Shown: one piece after another, positions 11,828-41,714 of the stretch
Position numbering within the stretch: the stretch's first letter is position 1
Layout: each line of letters opens with the position of its first letter
Assembly: GCF_030908405.1 (NCBI RefSeq)
Contig: NZ_CP133089.1
Span: forward strand, 1,116,001-1,180,000
Origin: Aminobacterium sp. MB27-C1
Lineage (GTDB): Bacteria; Synergistota; Synergistia; Synergistales; Aminobacteriaceae
Direction: 5' to 3'
Length of the DNA: 64,000 bases
The notes under the pieces: generated by a model
Databases searched by the model: none
Told to the model about the DNA's origin: nothing
What the model saw: only the letters and a program-made list of their open reading frames with translations
Position numbers and translations under genes: made by a program

Positions 11828-11870
11828 TATCTAGGTCTTTATGATTAACTATGTCAAGGAGGATTTCAAA

Positions 11871-12773
11871 ATGAACAATTTTGTCAGTGTTATTCAATTT
11901 TTTTTGTTTGTTACCGCAGAGCTGACGGTGCTATTTCTAGGAATCAGCACAGTTGTTACCATAATATTAATGTATATGCCGCAAGACAAGCTCAAAAACT
12001 GGCTCGCTCATCGTGGAATATGGGGTAATTTTCTGGGTGCTACTGTTGGCTCTCTAACTCCTTTTTGTGCTTGCTCAACCATACCAATGACCTTAGGTAT
12101 GTTGAGCGCTGGGGCACCTTTTGGGTCGGTTATGTCATTTATCATCGCTTCGCCTCTGCTGAATCCAATCATTATAAGCATGGTTTGGGTTCTTATGGGA
12201 ACGAAAGCTAGCTTAATTTATTTCTTCGTCACTTTTTTCGGATCGATTCTTTTCGGTGTTTTTCTTGAAAAAATAGGGGGGGCAAAATATGTGAAAAAGG
12301 TGAGGATCCAATCTAAATGCTGTTGTGCAAATAACGAGTCAGTAAATATTCCAATAAATTTTTCGAAAAAATTAAAGGCGTCATTTATTTCTGCCTGGAG
12401 TGATTTCAGAGCCATCCTTATTTACCTTCTTATTGGTATTAGCATCGGCGCAGTAATTTATGGCTACATTCCTCAAAATTTCGTAACAAAGATAGCTGGG
12501 CCTAATAATCCGTTTGCAATTCCAATTGCGGCCATTATTGGTGTTCCGCTTTATATACGGGCAGAAACAGCGATCCCGATTGGATTGGCGTTGTCTCAAA
12601 AAGGGATGAGTATGGGAGCCGTTATTGCTTTGATCATTGGCGGTGCAGGCATGGCAATACCCGAAATGATCATGCTCGCGGGTATCTTCAAAAAACGTTT
12701 AGTCAGCGCAATAGTTATCGTCATATGGGCTACAGCAGTTATAGGCGGATATGTATTTAACTCAATGCTTTAA
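11871..12773 (+). CDS. ArsP/UPF0718-type permease
   Basis: 300 residues with about eight hydrophobic segments. The motif TPFCACSTIPMTLGML near residue 57 matches the (F/T)PFC-C-S signature of the ArsP/DUF318 permease family, whose characterised member exports trivalent organoarsenicals; other members have unknown substrates. A cytoplasmic loop holds a three-cysteine run (SKCCCANNE) that could bind thiophilic metal or metalloid. The start is ATG 11871, preceded by AAGGAGG; an in-frame ATG at 11841 has no ribosome site. It is probably co-transcribed with the MarR gene and converges on the acr3-arsC-arsR operon, so it may form a second metalloid-resistance unit. Confidence 0.8.
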   Translation: MNNFVSVIQFFLFVTAELTVLFLGISTVVTIILMYMPQDKLKNWLAHRGIWGNFLGATVGSLTPFCACSTIPMTLGMLSAGAPFGSVMSFIIASPLLNPIIISMVWVLMGTKASLIYFFVTFFGSILFGVFLEKIGGAKYVKKVRIQSKCCCANNESVNIPINFSKKLKASFISAWSDFRAILIYLLIGISIGAVIYGYIPQNFVTKIAGPNNPFAIPIAAIIGVPLYIRAETAIPIGLALSQKGMSMGAVIALIIGGAGMAIPEMIMLAGIFKKRLVSAIVIVIWATAVIGGYVFNSML

Positions 12774-12799
12774 TATAAAAATAGATTAACTGTTGGCTA

Positions 12800-13981
12800 T
12801 TATGAAAACCAGCTAGACGTTCGCTTACAGATACCTACAAGCATCAGCATCACCGGTACTTCTATCAGTACACCAACTACTGTGGCAAGAGCAGCACCCG
12901 ATGAAAGGCCGAATAACATAACGGCAGTGGCAATGGCCACTTCAAAATGGTTGGAAGCACCTATCATGGCAGCCGGAGCGGCATCTTCGTATTTTAGTTT
13001 GAGGATATTTGCTGCACCGTAGCCTAGTCCAAAAATGAGAACGGTTTGTAAAAACAACGGTATGGAAATCCACAAAATGGTCAGCGGGTTGGCTAGAATA
13101 GTTTCGCCTTTGAAGCTGAACAGCAGAATTAGAGTCAGCAACAGTGCACTGATGGTTACCGGTGTTAGAACATGTAGAAATTTTTCTTTGAACCACTCTT
13201 CACCTTTGTATCTGATGATCCATTTGCGGGAGAAATATCCGGCAATCAGAGGCAATGCCACGTAAATAGCCACGGAAAGGAGTAGAGCCTGCCACGGCAC
13301 CGGCAGCTTACCGACACCTAGTAGGAATCCACCCAACACGCCATAGAGAACCAGCATAGTCAAAGAGTTAATGGCAACCATGACGAGAGTGAGACCATCA
13401 TTGCCACGAGCCAGATATCCCCAGACCAAAACCATGGCAGTACAAGGGGCGATTCCCAACAAGATACATCCGGCAAAATAACTTCGCCATAGCGGAATTT
13501 GAAGCATCTTTATGCCATTCTGCAAGACTACGGTTCCCACGCCGTGCACCGCTCCAACCGGAAGGTGAAGACCAAACGGCATTTTTACCAGGTCCACAGC
13601 TTCGGCCCCTATCAATCCCTTAAGCAGGATGCCAAGAAATAACATGGCGATGGCGTACATGGTAAACGGCTTGACGCACCAGTTGATAAACAGGGTTAGA
13701 AAAACCGGCTTTCCGCTTTTCCCTGCTTTGACCACGCTGGCAAAATCAATCTTGACCATGATCGGATACATCATGAAAAACAGGCAAATGGCAATCGGAA
13801 TGGATACTACAGGCGCTCCATTAACATTGATACTCATGCCATCCAACATTTGTGCCAGCCCCGGCGCGATTTTGCCGAGAAGAATCCCGGCCACAATACA
13901 TAACCCGACCCAGACAGTCAGGTATTTTTCAAAGTTGCTGGTCATATGCCGGTCGTTTACAGGAGAAATTTCATTGCTCAT
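12800..13981 (-). CDS. acr3: ACR3-family arsenite efflux permease
   Basis: 393 residues, ten predicted membrane helices. It exports arsenite or antimonite from the cytoplasm, driven by the proton motive force. Family features seen: [17 protein letters not shown] near the N-terminus, [13 protein letters not shown], the segment [19 protein letters not shown] containing the conserved membrane cysteine needed in ACR3, and [18 protein letters not shown] near the C-terminus. It is the last gene of the minus-strand arsR-arsC-acr3 operon, 57 bases after arsC. An AAGAGAGG-like ribosome site precedes the ATG. Confidence 0.95.
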
Positions 13982-14038
13982 AATGATAAACCTCTCTTAT
14001 GCTAGAACCACCCCGCTGCGCACCCACAGAATTGTCCG

Positions 14039-14485
14039 CTACTTATTCAATGCTTCGGGCAGGGTTTCGATAAATCTTTTGATTTCGTCACGCACTTTAC
14101 GATAGCACTCCAGTTGCTCTTCCTCCGATGCGTCTTGCTCCGCGAGTTCCTTTGCCATCTTTGGAGGATCGTCAAAACCGACATGTAGAACTTTGCAATT
14201 ACCCGGAAAGAACGGGCAGGTCTCGTGGGCATTGCCACATACAGTGATCACTACGTCTAGTTCGACATCCTTGAATTCGTCAATATGTTTGGGTTTGTGC
14301 CCCGAAATATTCACTCCGGCTTCGGCCATCACTTTTACAGCGTTTTGATTAAGGCTACCATTTTCGACCCCGGCTGAATAAGCCTCGATAACATCATCTT
14401 TCAGATGACGGGCCCAGCCTTCTGCCATCTGGCTGCGGCAGGAATTCCGGGTACACAGAAATAATACTTTCAGTTTTTTACTCAT
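14039..14485 (-). CDS. arsC: Arsenate reductase, thioredoxin-coupled (low-molecular-weight phosphatase fold)
   Basis: 148 residues. It reduces arsenate to arsenite, which the neighbouring Acr3 then exports. The P-loop LFLCTRNSCRSQMAEG carries the nucleophilic cysteine (residue 11) and a second cysteine at 16. The partner cysteines of the thioredoxin-type mechanism are in VCGNAHETCPFFPG (residues about 82 and 89). The motif DDPP follows. Middle gene of the ars operon; a TTAGGAGA site stands before the ATG. Confidence 0.95.
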   Translation of the reverse strand: MSKKLKVLFLCTRNSCRSQMAEGWARHLKDDVIEAYSAGVENGSLNQNAVKVMAEAGVNISGHKPKHIDEFKDVELDVVITVCGNAHETCPFFPGNCKVLHVGFDDPPKMAKELAEQDASEEEQLECYRKVRDEIKRFIETLPEALNK

Positions 14486-14514
14486 GATCTATCTCCTAAA
14501 TTTGTTAAATCCCC

Positions 14515-14892
14515 TTATTCGGAACAGCATTTCTCGTCGCACTGTTTTCTGCAAAGATCCTCTGGCTCTCGCGAAGTGATTCTCTCAAGTGTTTTTGCGT
14601 CGAGAGCGACATCCGGGTCATTGCTTAATTGTGCTTCAACCCAATCAATCAACGTAGCAAGATCATTTTGTTCCCGGCGAAGCCGGTAATAAACCCATCG
14701 GCCGTCTTTTCGGCTGTCCACTAGCCCTGATGAAATCAGAACTCCCATGTGTCGGGAGGCCGTCGCACCTGTAACTTGAATCAACTCCGTCAGTCGACAG
14801 GCACACAACTCGTTGCACCTCATGAGTGCTGACACAATCCGTAGCCGATTCCGGTCGGACAGTGCTTTAAATATTGCAGTCAGTTTACCCAT
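14515..14892 (-). CDS. arsR: ArsR-family metalloid-responsive repressor
   Basis: 125 residues from ATG 14892; an upstream in-frame ATG (14904) would add four residues, but GAGGG lies between the two and favours the inner start. A small winged-helix repressor: KALSDRNRLRIVSAL at the N-terminus, then ELCACRLTEL with the vicinal cysteine pair of As(III)-sensing ArsR proteins, then the recognition helix (TGATASRHMGVLISSGLV) and wing (RKDGRWVYYRL). A second cysteine group sits at the C-terminus (CRKQCDEKCCSE), which may add metal-binding sites. First gene of the minus-strand arsR-arsC-acr3 operon; repression is relieved by arsenite or antimonite. Confidence 0.94.
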   Translation of the reverse strand: MGKLTAIFKALSDRNRLRIVSALMRCNELCACRLTELIQVTGATASRHMGVLISSGLVDSRKDGRWVYYRLRREQNDLATLIDWVEAQLSNDPDVALDAKTLERITSREPEDLCRKQCDEKCCSE

Positions 14893-14909
14893 TTTAGCCC
14901 TCATTGTAT

Positions 14910-14937
14910 TTACTCAGTTAGCCAAGCATCTAAGTAA
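14910..14937. promoter_or_regulatory. Imperfect inverted repeat upstream of arsR (candidate operator)
   Basis: TTACTCAG (14910-14917) and CTAAGTAA (14930-14937) form an 8-bp dyad with one mismatch and a 12-base spacer, just before arsR. Position and form suit an ArsR autorepression site. Supported by pattern and location only. Confidence 0.45.
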
Positions 14938-15096
14938 TATTATGTAAAAAAAGAAACTCAGTCAAGTTTCTTTCTCACCAGAAGTCCTTCCTTTTCAACA
15001 ACAGCTATAAGGAAAACAGAAAAAGGTCTCAGACCAACCAATTTAGAAAAGTTATCGGCTTCCTTTCCATATATTCCTCTGAGATCAAAAAACTTC

Positions 15097-16062
15097 TTAC
15101 CTAAAGACTTGCGACGTTCCAATTTTGGGAAAAGGAACCGGGTCATAAGGGATTCCGTTCATTTGTGCTAATTTCTTTACATTTAGAAGATGAATTACAG
15201 GTATGCCTTTGTCTATAAAGTAAAAAATAAGCCCCTTACGCGGCCCATTGGGTAGAGAAGGAATATCTTGTACAAGTCCATTCGGAAATGATACCGAATC
15301 GTCACCATCTCCAAAATTAGCTGACGCGCCGCCTATATTTACAAAACATTGAATAGTTTCCCCTTTCGAAGCCTCTTTATAAATAGAAAGTCTCCTCTTT
15401 ATGCTTTCATCCATTTTTTGCTCACTAATAAGATAGAGCCTTGATCGCTTAGCTATTTCCAGTATTTCTTTTTGAGCTTCAGGGAAGAACATTCCTTCAG
15501 CCAGATCATTATGCCCCCCCATAGAGACAGCAACAATACTAAAAGGAAGTATTCCCCGTTTCGATATCTCTTTTAACATATCTAAAAATGTGAACTGTGG
15601 GAGGTTGGCTCCATACATTGAAGCCCCTATAGAATATATAACTAATGGATGAAGATCCAGCGCCTGCGCAGCAGAAAGAGTTGCGAGTATAAGTGCGGGG
15701 AATGAGCCACTAGCACCAATACAAACAATATCTCCCTTTTTTAAGCCTGCTTGATTTAAGTATGTTACCATCATAGCGGCGAAATCAGGATTAGCAGAGC
15801 TGCGCTTATCTTCAACTTCCCCAAGAGTCGTTGTAAGGGGCGTAAATTCTTCCCCTATAATGCCTGTCATATTAGGATCTAAAACATGATCTATAGGAAT
15901 ATTCATTGAAAGACGCTTTTCTTTGATAACAGACAAAGAATTTTTCATAATTTCAGCTGCTTCAATCTGTTTATTGTGCAATCCTGGCTTAAAAAACCCT
16001 TGAAGGGCAACAAAAAGTAAAATAAAAGCAAGAATATGAAAACGCACGTCTAGTTTTTTCAT
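15097..16062 (-). CDS. Poly-gamma-glutamate system protein (PgsW-like, function unknown)
   Basis: 321 residues with one N-terminal membrane segment (FHILAFILLFVALQGFF, residues 8-25), so anchored with the bulk outside. The rest matches, from memory, proteins named 'poly-gamma-glutamate system protein', a family found beside capsule-type genes but without a proven activity. Visible conserved-looking stretches: IGEEFTPLTTTLGEVEDKR, CIGASGSFPALILATLSAAQ (a nucleophile-elbow-like GxSGS), VSMGGHNDLAEGMF and NIGGASANFG. The GASGS and GGxxxxxG motifs hint at a ligand or nucleotide pocket (inference). It is the last gene of a six-gene minus-strand operon that also encodes two hydrolases and a permease. 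Confidence 0.75.
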   Translation of the reverse strand: MKKLDVRFHILAFILLFVALQGFFKPGLHNKQIEAAEIMKNSLSVIKEKRLSMNIPIDHVLDPNMTGIIGEEFTPLTTTLGEVEDKRSSANPDFAAMMVTYLNQAGLKKGDIVCIGASGSFPALILATLSAAQALDLHPLVIYSIGASMYGANLPQFTFLDMLKEISKRGILPFSIVAVSMGGHNDLAEGMFFPEAQKEILEIAKRSRLYLISEQKMDESIKRRLSIYKEASKGETIQCFVNIGGASANFGDGDDSVSFPNGLVQDIPSLPNGPRKGLIFYFIDKGIPVIHLLNVKKLAQMNGIPYDPVPFPKIGTSQVFR

Positions 16063-16168
16063 ATATACCCATTCTTCCTTGATAAAAAATAAAGTATAAA
16101 ATTGGCTGCAGCATAATCGCCGCAGCCATAAGGATACAAACTGTTAACAAAATGTACGTATTTTAGGC

Positions 16169-17746
16169 CTATCTCTTAAGAGGACCATACCCAATGAAGT
16201 TGTTCCATTCTTCAGGATATCCAGTTGTTTTAAAGTTACGATATCCAAGGGCATAGTTTCCAAGTAAATGATCACCAAGTTTAAGCCAATCCTGGTTCCA
16301 GCGAACAGCCCTATTATAAGCAAAATCTGTTATATGCTGTATTGCTTGTGTCTTTTTGCCAGCATTCCAAAGTTTTGCCGCATCTCTTTGAACTTGTGCA
16401 GTTTCACTATATTGATACTTAAGTTTAGGATCACGGAAATCATAAATTTCTTTAATTGCTTCGCAATAACGAAGTGTTGCCATTTCCTGAACGTAGGAAT
16501 TAACCCACCAGCCAGAATCTCTTCGGAAATCCTCAAATCTAGAACCTACTTCATAAAATTTGGGGAGTTTTGTCATAATGGGCCAAAGTGGGGTAATGTA
16601 CGTCGTATCAGGAGCACCGTATCCAAACCAGCTAATGCCCTTTAATCTACTTGGCATTCCAGGATGAACCTGTCCTATATGGATGTAGCACGTTCTATGC
16701 ATGTTAATTGATCGTTCCCAATCACCTTTTCCCTTATTAGCATGGCGAATAGGGTTCCCCCAGGGACCAGCTGCCGGCCCTTTTGTAAGATCATATTTTG
16801 TTCCCTGATAATAGTCGCCCTTAAGTTTAAAGATATCGTGAACAGAGAGCTTCTTGTCGGGTTTTACAAAGAGAGGGTAATTGTGCTCGCTTGGACTCTG
16901 TTTCAGAGAAGGAGTTACAAGTTCCTGGGCTCTCCATACTCTTCGTGTGGAGTAGAGTCGTTCCCAATAAGGAGCATATACTTCAGCTGGGCTGAATTTT
17001 TTTACATTGACTTCCGTAGGCTTAATCCATTTCATCTTTACGCCAAAAGATACGATATTGGGGGAGTGCATGACATTTTTCTTATCGGTAATGTCTATGT
17101 CACGAAGACGAGCACGGTTAGCAGCAACAAAGAACATATCATCTGGCATACGAACTGCGCACCAAACATCGCGTCCGTAAAATTCTGCAATCCATACCTC
17201 ATCGCCATCAGTTATATTAATCGTTTCACCAGGGCCAGCCCATCCATATTTTTCAACAAGGTCGCCCATAATTCTGACAGCTTCTCGCGCTGTTTTAGCT
17301 CGTTCAAGAGCAATATCCTGAGCAAACCAGCAGTCGATTATTCCGTCGCTTTCAGTCTCCATAACTCTTTCAACTTCTGGGTTATCTGTTCCAAATGTTG
17401 ATTCTCCCATAGCTAAACCCATTTCGTTCATGAAAGAATAACGAGATTTGAAATAACGATAAGTATGTTTAGCCTGTGGCATTTCCCCCATAACTTCACC
17501 TGGCTCATATCCATGATCGTTCATAATTATTTTACGAACAGATCCTGCGGGCCAGTCTTTTTCAGGAATAATCCAAAGTTTGAAGTTGGCACTTGTCGAG
17601 TCATCGTTGTGAGTGATCATTGCCGTTCCATCAATAGATGCCTTATTACCTACAGCAACAATGGTACACGCGAAGGAAACAGATGCCACGAGAAGAACGA
17701 GAGCAAAAGCTACAAAAACCGATAGTAATCTTTTTCTTTTCTCCAT
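16169..17746 (-). CDS. Secreted C69-family peptidase
   Basis: 525 residues. N-terminal signal peptide (LLSVFVAFALVLLVASVSFA) ends exactly before Cys27, which becomes the N-terminal nucleophile of the mature enzyme (CTIVAVGNKASIDG), as in Ntn-type C69 dipeptidases. GTAMITHNDDS, ESTFGTDN, EAVRIMGDLVEKYGWAG and DGDEVWIAEFYG are typical of the family. It should cleave short peptides in the periplasm or outside the cell. Ribosome site AAAGGGGAGG. It lies 44 bases after the aspartoacylase-like gene, in the same operon; together they suggest breakdown of an extracellular peptide or poly-amino acid. Confidence 0.9.
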   Translation of the reverse strand: MEKRKRLLSVFVAFALVLLVASVSFACTIVAVGNKASIDGTAMITHNDDSTSANFKLWIIPEKDWPAGSVRKIIMNDHGYEPGEVMGEMPQAKHTYRYFKSRYSFMNEMGLAMGESTFGTDNPEVERVMETESDGIIDCWFAQDIALERAKTAREAVRIMGDLVEKYGWAGPGETINITDGDEVWIAEFYGRDVWCAVRMPDDMFFVAANRARLRDIDITDKKNVMHSPNIVSFGVKMKWIKPTEVNVKKFSPAEVYAPYWERLYSTRRVWRAQELVTPSLKQSPSEHNYPLFVKPDKKLSVHDIFKLKGDYYQGTKYDLTKGPAAGPWGNPIRHANKGKGDWERSINMHRTCYIHIGQVHPGMPSRLKGISWFGYGAPDTTYITPLWPIMTKLPKFYEVGSRFEDFRRDSGWWVNSYVQEMATLRYCEAIKEIYDFRDPKLKYQYSETAQVQRDAAKLWNAGKKTQAIQHITDFAYNRAVRWNQDWLKLGDHLLGNYALGYRNFKTTGYPEEWNNFIGYGPLKR

Positions 17747-17790
17747 TCTTGTACCTCCCCTTTGTTATGAGCCACTTTTATTTGATTTTG

Positions 17791-18999
17791 TTAATTTAAA
17801 AACACCTTTTGTGGATCCGCTCTTGAAGGGTCGTGATAGTAATGTCCAACATCATTTTCCATAAGATCGTTAAAATCTGGCCAACTTAGAATAATTTCTT
17901 TTTCTGGATAGAAATCATTCATTTGTCGAACGAGTTCTAAAATACTTGACAGATGTCTTCCAACTCTGTATTTCATCGGAGCTCCTCGCTCAATGTCATA
18001 TTCAGGAGCACAGAAAAGCAGCCCGTGTTCTGAAGCAGTCTGCAAAAACTCATCTTTTCCTTCAAGCATGAGTTCTTCAGTTATTTTGCCTGCAACACGA
18101 TCAATAAAAGGTTCCTGTGTTTCCATCAGTACGGCAAGAACCCCTTCGTAATTTTCTTCTGGTACTGGAGAAAAATCTCCAACCTCTCTATGGGTAAGCC
18201 CACGAAGTTTCTTAGGACTTGCCTCGCATTTCATAGGAAAATCTCTGGCACTCAATTCCATAGAGGCCATCATTGCAATATCCATTGCGTTGTCATGAGC
18301 AACATAGGTGCTCACAACTGGATACATGAGAGATGCTTCGTGTGTATCACAAAAGAGATCTGCTTTTTCCTTTCGTATAAGCTCCATAATGGCGAAAGCA
18401 AGTTTTTCAGTTAGATTGCCGTCTGGTCTGCCAGGGAAGGTTCTGTTGAGGTTCCTGGCATCTGTATAGGCTAAATTTTGCTTTGAAGGATAGTGTACGT
18501 ACGTAAAAGGATCTGGCCATTGATGGAGAGGGTCCGTTGAACGATCTCCTATTCGAAATCTTTTGGGACCAAATGCCGTTTCAATATGGAAAAACTTAGG
18601 GTATGCATTACCAAGCATTCCCACATATGATGCACTCATATTTGCATGAGGAATGATAAAAGCTCTCCCTTTTTCAATTTCAATGTTTTCCATAGCTACA
18701 TAAGCAGATTGTGTTGTTGCTGGTTCGTAAGGATGGGTTCCTCCCAAAAAGACGAGGGTCCCACCAGAAACTCCAGAATCGAAAATGTAAACCGGAGTAT
18801 CTACAGGGGTATCTTTAATTCCTTCAAAATAATCGCTCAACATTACTTTTTTTGTAAAATCATTTGACACTACGATGGTTTCTTGGAAATTTCGTAGATC
18901 AAGAAATTCTCTCGCGCCGAGAAAAGCAACAAGAAGAGCGACACCGAGTATTATTATTTTTTTGATAATTTCTTTTTGAGATAACTTTTCTATACTCAC
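17791..18999 (-). CDS. Membrane-anchored succinylglutamate desuccinylase/aspartoacylase-family zinc hydrolase
   Basis: 402 residues from GTG 18999, which has an AGGTGG site 5 bases upstream; an in-frame GTG at 19008 directly abuts the preceding stop. One N-terminal membrane helix (IIKKIIILGVALLVAFLG) then an M14-like domain. Candidate zinc ligands are His and Glu in LGGTHPYEPAT (residues about 89 and 92) and His in FCDTHEASL (about 220); ARNLNRTFPG is the substrate carboxylate-binding NxxR-like motif. The family removes acyl groups or C-terminal residues from amino-acid conjugates. Being outside the membrane next to a C69 peptidase and a poly-gamma-glutamate system protein, it may trim gamma- or alpha-linked glutamate peptides (inference). 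Confidence 0.82.
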   Translation of the reverse strand: MSIEKLSQKEIIKKIIILGVALLVAFLGAREFLDLRNFQETIVVSNDFTKKVMLSDYFEGIKDTPVDTPVYIFDSGVSGGTLVFLGGTHPYEPATTQSAYVAMENIEIEKGRAFIIPHANMSASYVGMLGNAYPKFFHIETAFGPKRFRIGDRSTDPLHQWPDPFTYVHYPSKQNLAYTDARNLNRTFPGRPDGNLTEKLAFAIMELIRKEKADLFCDTHEASLMYPVVSTYVAHDNAMDIAMMASMELSARDFPMKCEASPKKLRGLTHREVGDFSPVPEENYEGVLAVLMETQEPFIDRVAGKITEELMLEGKDEFLQTASEHGLLFCAPEYDIERGAPMKYRVGRHLSSILELVRQMNDFYPEKEIILSWPDFNDLMENDVGHYYHDPSRADPQKVFLN

Positions 19000-19008
19000 G
19001 ATGCCCAC

Positions 19009-19185
19009 CTACTTTATATGTAAAACCCTTAGGAGAAAGGGTATCAAGGTGTAAGCATAAACGATGTCATAAATAATGCTTCTCCGTGTCTTTCTGAAAA
19101 AAAGACTTCTAAGTAGTAACAATCCGAGGAAAGCTGCAATGAGGTAATAAATGGAATGTATTATGGAATTTAAAAAAGTTAGCAA
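19009..19185 (-). CDS. Small membrane protein, 58 residues, TTG start
   Basis: An open frame begins at TTG (19185-19183), 6 bases after an AAGGAGG ribosome site, and ends with TAG at 19011-19009. The product starts MLTFLNSIIHSIYYLIAAFL and continues with a leucine-rich run and basic residues (FFRKTRRSIIYD), then a second hydrophobic stretch. One or two membrane segments are likely. It fills the gap between the permease (stop at 19198) and the hydrolase (GTG starts at 19008 and 18999), with almost no spare bases on either side, so it is most likely a real gene of this operon. I recognise no family; a small subunit or helper of the neighbouring permease is one possibility. Confidence 0.7.
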   Translation of the reverse strand: MLTFLNSIIHSIYYLIAAFLGLLLLRSLFFRKTRRSIIYDIVYAYTLIPFLLRVLHIK

Positions 19186-19197
19186 ATCAATCCCTCC

Positions 19198-20499
19198 TTA
19201 TCTCATTACAAGGAAGCTAAAAAAGTTAGCATTCATCAGAATTATGAGAGCGGTAATTCCCATGAAAAGAGCAGGGATGGCAATAGCCCGTAGGAAAGAC
19301 ATATAGCTTCCCTCATAACCTGAAACCTCAATAGCAACTCTTCCCGAAATTCTGGAGGGAGGCATACAATCCCCCAGAGGAAATATTAAGCTAAGAGCGG
19401 CAGCAACAATTGTTACATTGAATCCGATAGAATTGAAAAGGAAAATAAGAGGTGTTCCTAAAATAATGGCGCTTCCATAACTTAGTGAACCTTGTGCCAT
19501 CGGCAAGAAAAATATAGCAGTAAGATATATAAAGGTAACTGGCAAAGTTACAAAAGTTATGGCAATAAGGCCTCTCACACCAGTTGCTGTCATTATATTA
19601 ACCAAAACCCCGACGCTAATAACTGTTGCCAAAAGGGGGAAGACCTGTTCGATTGTATTAACAAGGACTTCATACCAATGGGAAAATGGCTTTTTCTGAG
19701 GATCGCAAAGGATAGAAATTCCACCACATATAAGAAAATTTAAAGGCAATCCTACTGTTGGCATATTAAAAGCAGCATATTTTGATAAAAGGACAATAAC
19801 AAGGAAAGTCCCCATGGGGAAAATTATTCTGAACCAGTTCATTCCGTCAACTATAGGAGGTAATTCAGAAAGCACCTTAGCTTTAGGTTGAGGAGTTCCT
19901 CCACGAAGAAGAAAAATAACGGCAAAGGCAGTAATAAATAGTATGGGAACCAATAGGGGAATCGTAAAACCTACATAGGGCATATTAGCTTGGGCCGCCA
20001 TGAGCATGGCCCATAAATTAATGGGAGGAGCTACAGCTGCCAGCATTGATGTTACGTAAATAAATGCAGTAGTTTTAACAGAAGTGATCCCCATATAATG
20101 GAGAACAGTAGCTATCATCCCGCCGACAACAAACATAGAAACACTTCCAGCACCAGTTAAAGCGCCTGGAATGAGCATGATCACTGCTAGAATAGAGAAA
20201 AGAACCCACTTGGTATCGTAAAATCGATCGACCATTTTTCTGACCAGAGCATTCATCGCACCAGTATCAGAATAAAGGTTAACAAAAATAGACGCTGTTA
20301 CGAAGATAAGACCTACATCAAAATAAGTGAAGGTTCCTTCTACAAGAAGGCGAACTGGAAAGCCTAATTTCCCAGCAAAAGCCCCTGCAATAGCAGTGAT
20401 AACCATAGAAATTTCAGGCGACTTCAACTTCCAGCTGCACAGGGCAAACACAACAACCATGACAGCCAGTACAATGGATGTTTCAGCATACATAGACAT
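19198..20499 (-). CDS. DctM-like / ion-transporter-superfamily permease
   Basis: 433 residues with about eleven hydrophobic helices and two repeat-like halves. LIPGALTGAGSVSMFVVGG and VAAVAPPINLWAML-like segments (residues about 110-165), and a second GSLSYGSAIILGTPLIF plus LGDCMPPSRISG near the end, resemble the large subunit of TRAP carriers and related anion importers. It probably takes up an organic anion or short acidic peptide. No DctQ or receptor of normal type is adjacent; instead it is flanked by the secreted DUF6305-like protein and a 58-residue membrane protein, which may serve as partners (inference). Confidence 0.8.
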   Translation of the reverse strand: MSMYAETSIVLAVMVVVFALCSWKLKSPEISMVITAIAGAFAGKLGFPVRLLVEGTFTYFDVGLIFVTASIFVNLYSDTGAMNALVRKMVDRFYDTKWVLFSILAVIMLIPGALTGAGSVSMFVVGGMIATVLHYMGITSVKTTAFIYVTSMLAAVAPPINLWAMLMAAQANMPYVGFTIPLLVPILFITAFAVIFLLRGGTPQPKAKVLSELPPIVDGMNWFRIIFPMGTFLVIVLLSKYAAFNMPTVGLPLNFLICGGISILCDPQKKPFSHWYEVLVNTIEQVFPLLATVISVGVLVNIMTATGVRGLIAITFVTLPVTFIYLTAIFFLPMAQGSLSYGSAIILGTPLIFLFNSIGFNVTIVAAALSLIFPLGDCMPPSRISGRVAIEVSGYEGSYMSFLRAIAIPALFMGITALIILMNANFFSFLVMR

Positions 20500-20520
20500 A
20501 TTATAGATGCCTACTATTGT

Positions 20521-21111
20521 TTACTGATACATTTCCTGGACAACTTTCATAAAATCCAGGGTTTCGTCAATAATTGTTAAAGGGACTCCGTTTGTTTTGG
20601 CTAATTCAGTAAAACGACCGTCTTCGTTACTATCTTTCTTTACAATAAATGCATGTGCAAAAGGAGCTATTGCATCTATAGATCGCTCATCAGCACTTCC
20701 AGGCTTACCTCTTCGAGTGTTTCCCTCAATGTGGCAAGCTATGATTTGAAGTCCATCGGCCTTTGCTGATTCCATTATTTTATTAAGTCTGGCTATTTCC
20801 TCATCAATTGTTATGCCAGAAGCGCCCAATCCCTTAGCCGAAGAACCTATAATCACCATTATCGTTTTAAATCCGCCAGCCTTAATATCTTCTGGCCATG
20901 GTTCAGAGAGATATTTAAAATCTGTAACAGCTTTAGACCTTGTTACTAAAAGCCTTCCCATTTTTCCGCCAGGACCCTGCCCAGCATTAGTAATTAAAAG
21001 AGGAACATTTCCCTTCATTGGAGCGTCACCAGTAACAGCTGCATTCGATGGAATGGGGGATAGAGAGAGGAAGAGAGAAAGAATACAAAGGCAGATTATA
21101 ACTTTTTTCAT
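20521..21111 (-). CDS. Secreted DUF6305-like protein
   Basis: 196 residues from ATG 21111, chosen because AAGGGGAG stands 9 bases upstream; the longer frame would need a TTG at 21132 without a site. Signal peptide (VIICLCILSLFLSLSPIPSNA). The mature protein begins with PLLITNAGQGPGGKMGRLLV and has GGFKTIMVIIGSSAKGLGASG and ACHIEGNTRRGKPGSADERSI, features I associate with DUF6305. The GxGPGG and SSAKGLGASG loops could bind a small anionic ligand. As the first gene of an operon with a permease it may be an atypical solute receptor, which would be new for this family (inference). Confidence 0.7.
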   Translation of the reverse strand: MKKVIICLCILSLFLSLSPIPSNAAVTGDAPMKGNVPLLITNAGQGPGGKMGRLLVTRSKAVTDFKYLSEPWPEDIKAGGFKTIMVIIGSSAKGLGASGITIDEEIARLNKIMESAKADGLQIIACHIEGNTRRGKPGSADERSIDAIAPFAHAFIVKKDSNEDGRFTELAKTNGVPLTIIDETLDFMKVVQEMYQ

Positions 21112-21167: not shown

Positions 21168-21196
21168 AGTGTATGAAAACTTAATAACCGTGTCAA
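21168..21196 (-). promoter_or_regulatory. Sigma-70-type promoter of the six-gene poly-gamma-glutamate/peptidase operon
   Basis: On the minus strand TTGACA (-35, 21191-21196), 17-base spacer, TACACT (-10, 21168-21173). The DUF6305-like start codon follows about 57 bases downstream. Confidence 0.7.
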
Positions 21197-21224: not shown

Positions 21225-21255
21225 CCAGATTACATACGATTTAGAGCCAATCTGG
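21225..21255. promoter_or_regulatory. Inverted repeat between divergent operons
   Basis: CCAGATT (21225-21231) and AATCTGG (21249-21255) form a 7-bp perfect dyad, centre-to-centre 24 bases, upstream of the -35 of the minus-strand operon and before the ABC transporter genes. It may be an operator serving either side. Pattern only. Confidence 0.3.
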
Positions 21256-21341
21256 TTATAGTTATAACTACAAATAACGAGTATATTTAATTTGTTCGGC
21301 GAGATAATTCGGTGAAATAATAAAGAGGGAGTGTGCAAAAT

Positions 21342-41366: not shown

Positions 41367-41395
41367 TTGACAGCAATTTGTAAATACTTTATTGT
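41367..41395 (+). promoter_or_regulatory. Sigma-70-type promoter of the cold-shock gene
   Basis: TTGACA (-35, 41367-41372), 17-base spacer, TATTGT (-10, 41390-41395), 58 bases before the start codon. Confidence 0.65.
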
Positions 41396-41452
41396 TGTTT
41401 TGCTGATAGGCGCCATCAGTAATACATGCAAAAGATTCTAGGAGGCAGTATT

Positions 41453-41656
41453 TTGACAACTCAGGGAACAGTCAAATGGTTTAATGCGTCAAAAGGTTAT
41501 GGCTTCATCACAACTGACGAAGGCAAAGACATTTTTGTTCATTTCAGCGCTATTCAGAGCGATGGTTTTAAAACCCTCGACGAAGGCCAGAAAGTTTCTT
41601 TTGATATTGTAGAAGGACCTAAAGGGGAACAGGCCGCTAACGTTGTAAAGCTTTAG
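41453..41656 (+). CDS. Cold-shock domain protein (CspA family)
   Basis: 67 residues from TTG 41453, chosen because TAGGAGG lies 8 bases upstream and the protein then begins right at the family N-terminus ([18 protein letters not shown]). RNP1 (KGYGFI) and RNP2 (DIFVHFSAI) motifs are intact. It is a single OB-fold RNA/ssDNA chaperone that melts mRNA structure. Own promoter upstream and own terminator downstream, so monocistronic. Confidence 0.95.
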
Positions 41657-41684
41657 TTTTTGTCTTCACAATTCTGAAGCGAAT

Positions 41685-41714
41685 AAAGGCAGCACAAAAT
41701 GTGCTGCCTTTTTA
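41685..41714 (+). terminator. Rho-independent terminator of the cold-shock gene
   Basis: AAGGCAGCAC / GTGCTGCCTT stem around a 4-base loop (AAAAT region), followed by TTTTATTTTA. Confidence 0.9.

What the first reader, a model, noticed from the sequence alone, without database searches (positions are those of the whole stretch)
15097..21111. Six-gene operon of unknown system: two exported hydrolases, permease, receptor-like DUF6305, mini membrane protein, poly-gamma-glutamate system protein
All six genes run in one direction behind one good promoter, and at least five products are exported or membrane bound. A C69 peptidase and an aspartoacylase-like zinc hydrolase outside the membrane, plus a DctM-like importer, could break down and take up a glutamate-rich polymer or acylated amino acids. 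The 'poly-gamma-glutamate' family name rests on neighbourhood only, and no PgsB or PgsC synthase is present here. This is the best candidate for an undescribed pathway in the window.
Basis: partly seen in the sequence, partly recalled or inferred. Interest (0 to 1): 0.65.

Follow-up and report, generated by a model that had tools for sequence, protein, structure and literature searches.

The report
Poly-glutamate recycling operon split from synthase
These six genes are a real operon, probably the breakdown-and-uptake half of a bacterial poly-gamma-glutamate system found in at least eleven phyla and here separated from the genes that make the polymer; much of it, including a conserved 58-residue membrane protein, has no described function.

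Summary
The six genes are real and co-directional: exported DUF6305 (A), DctM-like permease (B), 58-aa membrane protein (C), membrane-anchored AstE/AspA-like zinc hydrolase (D), exported C69 Ntn hydrolase (E), PgsW/TIGR04332 (F). The order recurs in at least six relatives. Among 80 PgsW loci from many phyla, 43 carry A+B+D, 37 of these with PgsB or PgsC alongside. In three Clostridia the order is A-B-C-D-E-PgsB-PgsC-F, so the window operon looks like that locus minus its synthase; this genome keeps PgsB-PgsC with a second, distant PgsW 0.88 Mb away. In 151 phylum genomes, A co-occurs with D (57/57) and PgsC (51/57, against 3/94 without A). The slot after D holds C69 (13 loci) or gamma-glutamyltransferase (26), never both. 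C was found in 42 of 42 B-D gaps. Best reading: exported hydrolases trim a gamma-linked glutamate polymer and a reduced TRAP-like permease re-imports the products. Corrections: the synthase exists elsewhere in the genome, a terminator-like hairpin separates E from F, and two similar cassettes in this genome lack an adjacent synthase.

The parts
21168..21196 (-). Candidate promoter TTGACA-17-TACACT upstream of A
   Evidence: 10 of 12 consensus matches, but promoter-like sites in the region are at chance frequency
20521..21111 (-). Gene A: exported DUF6305 protein (ATG at 21111, GGGGAG just upstream)
   Evidence: PF19823 144.9 bits; N-terminal hydrophobic signal; model pLDDT 94.7; start read from sequence
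19198..20499 (-). Gene B: DctM-like (TRAP superfamily) permease
   Evidence: No Pfam hit alone; family profile hits DctM proteins of the same genome at E 2e-8 to 8e-4, two of them confirmed as DctM by Pfam, and a TRAP DctMQ structure at E 0.015 over the full length
19009..19185 (-). Gene C: 58-aa membrane protein with conserved C-terminus R-x(1-3)-[LIV]-[KRVA]
   Evidence: Homologue in 42 of 42 B-D gaps; motif in 0 antisense and 0 shuffled controls
17791..19008 (-). Gene D: membrane-anchored AstE/AspA/DoeB-like zinc hydrolase
   Evidence: Invariant H92, E95, H223, N188, R189, E296 in 26 sequences; PDB matches to DoeB/AstE-family structures; N-terminal anchor
16169..17746 (-). Gene E: exported C69 Ntn hydrolase, nucleophile Cys27 right after the signal peptide
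   Evidence: PF03577 239.8 bits; C27 invariant in 11 homologues; PDB dipeptidase 5iau E 6e-53
16103..16128 (-). Terminator-like hairpin between E and F
   Evidence: whole E-F gap z -4.35
15097..16062 (-). Gene F: PgsW (TIGR04332) of the C69-type lineage, N-terminal anchor
   Evidence: 345.3 bits; tree clade 100/98; model pLDDT 95.4
14935..14985 (-). Hairpin with U run after F, likely terminator
   Evidence: 13-bp stem, z -4.07

Best explanation
The operon is the turnover half of a gamma-linked polyglutamate (PGA) system. Polymer or its fragments outside the inner membrane are cut from their ends by two exported hydrolases. D, an AstE/AspA-type zinc enzyme, would release the terminal glutamate, which is N-acylated by the next gamma-glutamyl residue. 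E, a C69 Ntn hydrolase, takes the slot that gamma-glutamyltransferase (GGT) occupies in other loci. Glutamate or short gamma-glutamyl peptides are then imported by a reduced TRAP-like permease: B (DctM-like), with C and A in place of DctQ and DctP. F (PgsW) is a membrane-anchored partner of the PgsBC synthase with unknown chemistry. In this genome the synthase PgsB-PgsC with a second PgsW is 0.88 Mb away, so synthesis and recycling are split between loci. Shown: gene content and order, linkage to and co-occurrence with PgsC, conservation of C, conserved zinc and nucleophile residues, exclusivity of C69 and GGT, two separate PgsW lineages. Inferred: polymer identity, cleavage specificity, import direction, and the roles of A, C and F.
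For: A-B-C-D-E-F order in at least six relatives, and A-B-C-D-E-PgsB-PgsC-F in three Clostridia. 43 of 80 PgsW loci have A+B+D, 37 of them with PgsB or PgsC, in at least 11 phyla. A with PgsC 51/57 against 3/94, A with D 57/57. C69 only 13, GGT only 26, both 0, with at least 3 switches on the PgsW tree. D has the zinc and substrate-binding residues of the DoeB/AstE family. B profile hits DctM proteins. Six genomes carry the cassette without a PgsC match, which fits uptake better than export. Annotated Fusobacteriota example: ggt, two chromate transporters, HK, RR, ggt, DUF6305, TRAP permease, 47-aa protein, desuccinylase, pgsB, pgsC, pgsW; Fusobacterium nucleatum is reported to make PGA (Candela 2009, cited in PMC3815933).
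Against: No biochemistry. PgsB and PgsC of this genome score below the NCBIfam equivalog cut-offs (124.7 against 222.7; 78.7 against 96.45), so the polymer may not be plain PGA. Two further cassettes in the genome have no PgsBC beside them, and six genomes have the cassette without PgsC, so the substrate may be wider than self-made PGA. Known C69 enzymes are dipeptidases of ordinary peptides (own knowledge). No regulatory motif shared with the PgsBC locus was found.
Confidence: 0.6

Rival explanations
1. Scavenging module: the cassette feeds on foreign gamma-glutamyl peptides, PGA or N-acyl amino acids from the surroundings and has no tie to self-made polymer in this organism.
For: The window genome has three such cassettes, none adjacent to its PgsBC, one of them beside a sensor kinase with SBP_bac_3 domains; six genomes have the cassette without PgsC, among them G004, scored 100% complete.
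Against: Across phyla the cassette lies next to PgsB or PgsC in 37 of 43 A+B+D loci, though these loci were found through PgsW, which favours synthase-linked cases; in the phylum survey, which does not depend on linkage, A and PgsC co-occur in 51 of 57 genomes.
Confidence: 0.22
2. Export and finishing machine: A-B-C move newly made polymer outward, while D and E trim or release it (as CapD and PgsS do in Bacillus).
For: Constant partnership with PgsB-PgsC-PgsW, and no PgsA seen in these clusters.
Against: The cassette persists in genomes without a PgsC match; DctM-type permeases are importers of small acids (established knowledge) and could hardly pass a polymer.
Confidence: 0.1
3. Same architecture but another gamma-linked or N-acylated amino acid polymer, not polyglutamate.
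For: PgsB and PgsC below equivalog cut-offs; LarA-type racemase genes beside some PgsBC clusters are unexplained by polyglutamate.
Against: GGT-family enzymes in the slot after D act on gamma-glutamyl bonds (established knowledge); the CapC Pfam model is over its cut-off.
Confidence: 0.08

Closest known systems
Bacillus PgsBCA(E) / CapBCADE poly-gamma-glutamate system
   Same: PgsB and PgsC homologues in the linked loci; a GGT-type (CapD-like) enzyme and a very small membrane protein in the cluster
   Different: The window operon has no PgsB, PgsC or PgsA; it carries DUF6305, a DctM-like permease, an AstE-like hydrolase and PgsW, which are not in the Bacillus operon as modelled in PMC5542703
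Cetobacterium somerae pgs locus (NZ_CP143320)
   Same: DUF6305, TRAP permease, 47-aa protein, succinylglutamate desuccinylase and pgsW in the same order
   Different: It has pgsB-pgsC in the cluster and GGT instead of C69; the window lacks the synthase
TRAP transporters (DctPQM)
   Same: B is a distant DctM relative; an exported protein and a small membrane protein are encoded beside it
   Different: No DctQ (about 130-200 aa) and no DctP; C is 47-65 aa and A is a single 20-kDa alpha/beta domain
AstE/AspA/DoeB zinc acylases; phage gamma-PGA hydrolase PghP
   Same: D keeps the zinc ligands, the N-R motif and the catalytic Glu; PghP is also a zinc enzyme related to carboxypeptidase A (PMC4497714)
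   Different: D is membrane-anchored and outside the cytoplasm, and under Pfam's cut-off; no sequence link to PghP was shown

Membership tests
PGA synthesis/capsule system (CapB and CapC mandatory, PMC5542703) | CapB/PgsB and CapC/PgsC in the operon | tested here: not met
   Neither is in the window; the genome's only PgsC is at 2,010,545, next to PgsB
PGA synthesis/capsule system (CapB and CapC mandatory, PMC5542703) | CapB and CapC somewhere in the same genome | tested here: met
   CapC Pfam over cut-off; PgsB and PgsC hit the NCBIfam models but below the equivalog cut-offs
TIGR04332 (PgsW) | Score over the curated cut-off | tested here: met
   345.3 bits against 100
DUF6305 (PF19823) | Score over the curated cut-off | tested here: met
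   144.9 bits against 25
C69 peptidases | PF03577 over cut-off and conserved N-terminal Cys nucleophile | tested here: met
   239.8 bits; C27 invariant; but below the NCBIfam C69 dipeptidase equivalog cut-off, 222.4 against 250
AstE/AspA zinc hydrolases | Pfam catalytic-domain score over cut-off | tested here: not met
   PF24827 21.2 bits against 25
AstE/AspA zinc hydrolases | Zinc ligands H-x-x-E and H, N-R motif, catalytic Glu | tested here: met
   H92, E95, H223, N188, R189, E296 invariant; H-x-x-E, N-R motif and second His align with DoeB/AstE-family structures
TRAP transporter | DctM subunit | tested here: inconclusive
   No PF06808 hit for B alone, but its family profile finds DctM proteins
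TRAP transporter | DctQ subunit and DctP binding protein beside DctM | tested here: not met
   A is DUF6305 and C has no family hit; a true DctQ in the same genome is found by Pfam
gamma-PGA degradation and uptake system | Cleavage of gamma-Glu bonds and transport of the products | not testable with these tools
   Needs enzyme and transport assays

The most novel reading that the evidence does not exclude
A-B-C is a new kind of reduced TRAP-like importer: a DctM-type permease that works with a 47-65-residue membrane protein and an exported DUF6305 protein instead of DctQ and DctP. It is dedicated to recovering the products of gamma-polyglutamate cut outside the inner membrane, so that in these phyla the polymer is a recyclable store or osmolyte rather than only a capsule.
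Probability: 0.35. Interest if true: 0.8.

Novelty: new variant of a known kind. Interest (0 to 1): 0.6.

Why it matters
Poly-gamma-glutamate is known mainly as a Bacillus capsule and industrial polymer. CapBC genes in Synergistetes, Fusobacteria and other phyla have been noted (PMC5542703), but no turnover route was found described in the searched library. A conserved hydrolase-permease module in at least eleven phyla, with DUF6305 and an unclassified 47-65-aa membrane protein, would explain how these bacteria recover the polymer, give candidate functions to several unknown families, and make the question 'capsule or recyclable store' testable. It also shows C69 and gamma-glutamyltransferase exchanging in one slot, which predicts a gamma-glutamyl activity for a branch of C69.

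Tried and rejected
Independent scatter of the genes: rejected by co-occurrence. A single Synergistota PgsW lineage: rejected on the sampled rows (AU p 4e-61; the group was named after seeing the tree and long branches are present). DUF6305 as an active SGNH hydrolase: Foldseek's best hits are TesA-like (E 5e-5, TM only 0.34), but the GDS serine position is not conserved (window reads N-A-G-Q-G), so no enzyme claim is made. PgsW fold: no Foldseek hit under 1e-3 and best VIA Z 7.5, so nothing is assigned. Shared operator between the window operon, the other two cassettes and PgsB: no shared 11-mer involves the window's promoter region. Papers: none mention DUF6305; 'poly-gamma-glutamate system protein' occurs in one Francisella paper only; 'pgsW' hits are unrelated. 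First attempts to read loci files and one alignment failed for clerical reasons.

Full report
What is there. Six minus-strand genes fill 21111-15097: A DUF6305, B permease, C 58-aa membrane protein, D AstE/AspA-like hydrolase, E C69 hydrolase, F PgsW/TIGR04332. The promoter is a pattern match at chance frequency. The E-F gap contains a GC-rich hairpin with a U-rich tail (z -4.35), and F is followed by another hairpin with a U run (z -4.07), so A-E may be the main transcript and F attenuated.

Synthase elsewhere. The window lies in a 2.43-Mb genome held as one contig. Its only PgsC match is at 2,010,545, in a PgsB-PgsC-PgsW2-response regulator-LarA-like cluster.

The cassette in relatives. In the same order (Synergistota, by the named matching loci) the sequence A-B-C-D-E-F recurs in at least six genomes (L033, L034, L036, L037, L038, and L042, whose contig ends before A); in L033 and L034, and in L142, it directly follows PgsB-PgsC-PgsW2. 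Other relatives have A-B-D-GGT-PgsB-PgsC-PgsW with room for C, often followed by a histidine kinase, a response regulator and a LarA-like gene.

The cassette across phyla. A scan of 84,980 species genomes with a PgsW alignment gave 80 loci. 43 have A, B and D, and 37 of these also PgsB or PgsC, in at least 11 named phyla; many are metagenome bins, so single phylum labels may be wrong. In three Clostridia the order is A-B-C-D-E-PgsB-PgsC-F (L054, L055, L057). That is the window operon with the synthase between E and F; the simplest view is that the Synergistota form lost it. Cetobacterium somerae carries the GGT form, annotated gene by gene.

Co-occurrence. In 151 genomes of the phylum, DUF6305 is in 57, D in 59, PgsC in 54 and PgsW in 58. 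All 57 DUF6305 genomes have D; 51 have PgsC, against 3 of the 94 without DUF6305 (Fisher p 1e-29; genomes are not independent and one genus without the genes is heavily represented). Six genomes have the cassette without PgsC, so it can stand alone.

Two PgsW lineages. On a 96-row tree window F falls in a 22-row clade (100/98) with Halanaerobiales, Clostridia, Spirochaetales and other Synergistota, mostly C69-type loci. PgsW2 of the same genome falls in another clade (100/100) of mostly GGT-type loci. Holding the sampled Synergistota PgsW together as one clade is rejected.

C69 and GGT share a slot. Of the 43 A+B+D loci, 13 have C69 only, 26 GGT only, none both and 4 neither, which may reflect contig ends. 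The tree needs at least three switches. Both are Ntn hydrolases and GGT acts on gamma-glutamyl bonds (established knowledge), which points to a gamma-glutamyl substrate for E (inference).

D. Zinc ligands H92, E95 and H223, the N188-R189 motif and E296 are invariant in 26 sequences, and the profile finds DoeB and AstE-family structures. AstE cuts N-succinyl-glutamate. gamma-Glu-Glu is likewise a glutamate N-acylated by a carboxylated chain, so trimming glutamate from the end of gamma-PGA is chemically reasonable (inference).

B and C. B has no Pfam hit, but its profile finds proteins of the same genome, two of which Pfam identifies as DctM. C was unclassified. Reading every B-D gap found a small hydrophobic ORF with the same C-terminal motif in 42 of 42 loci, against 5 antisense and 3 shuffled hydrophobic ORFs, none with the motif. 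C is therefore a real, conserved gene.

A and F. Both models are confident (pLDDT 94.7 and 95.4), but the structure searches give no assignable function.

Mechanism, shown and inferred. Shown: anatomy, linkage, co-occurrence, conserved active sites, exclusivity of C69 and GGT, conservation of C. Inferred: exported hydrolases trim a gamma-linked polymer, A-B-C imports the products, F assists the synthase. The main uncertainty is the substrate. PgsB and PgsC lie below the NCBIfam equivalog cut-offs, and the genome holds two more cassettes without PgsBC, so a wider gamma-glutamyl or N-acyl amino acid diet is possible.

Known and new. PGA synthesis genes in Synergistetes and Fusobacteria are published (PMC5542703), and Fusobacterium nucleatum is reported to make PGA (cited in PMC3815933). 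The module, DUF6305, the small protein C and the C69/GGT exchange were not found described in the searched library, which lacks most subscription papers. I therefore rate it a new variant of a known kind.

Noticed in passing
G000:C1:297-305 kb (L133) and 2049-2056 kb (L134): Two more related cassettes in the same genome without PgsBC. L133 has C69 genes on both sides of A-B-D. L134 has B and D with the same first 70 residues as L133 but no A, beside a sensor kinase with SBP_bac_3 domains and a response regulator.
   Followed up: partly
L133, upstream of the genes whose starts lie near 12734 and 10728: A stretch (GTTATGAACAAAAAGATACACTT) is repeated upstream of both the first C69 gene and gene A, a possible regulatory site.
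   Followed up: no
L003:5482-6735 (also L043, L044, L052, L132): A LarA-family (nickel-pincer racemase) gene ends several PgsBC loci; best NCBIfam hit LarAH10 at 257 bits against a cut-off of 540. Its role beside a glutamate polymer is unexplained.
   Followed up: partly
window 21225-21290: Between A and the divergent ABC-transporter gene lie a perfect palindrome AGTTATAACT and an inverted repeat CCAGATT...AATCTGG, possible operators.
   Followed up: no
window 41369-41714: A cspA thermoregulator RNA match just over Rfam's gathering score (79.4 bits, cut-off 78).
   Followed up: no
window 11841-14904: The downstream neighbours read like an arsenic-resistance cluster (ArsR-type regulator confirmed by Pfam; ArsC-like protein, Acr3-like transporter and permease by eye only); no sign of a tie to the finding.
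   Followed up: no
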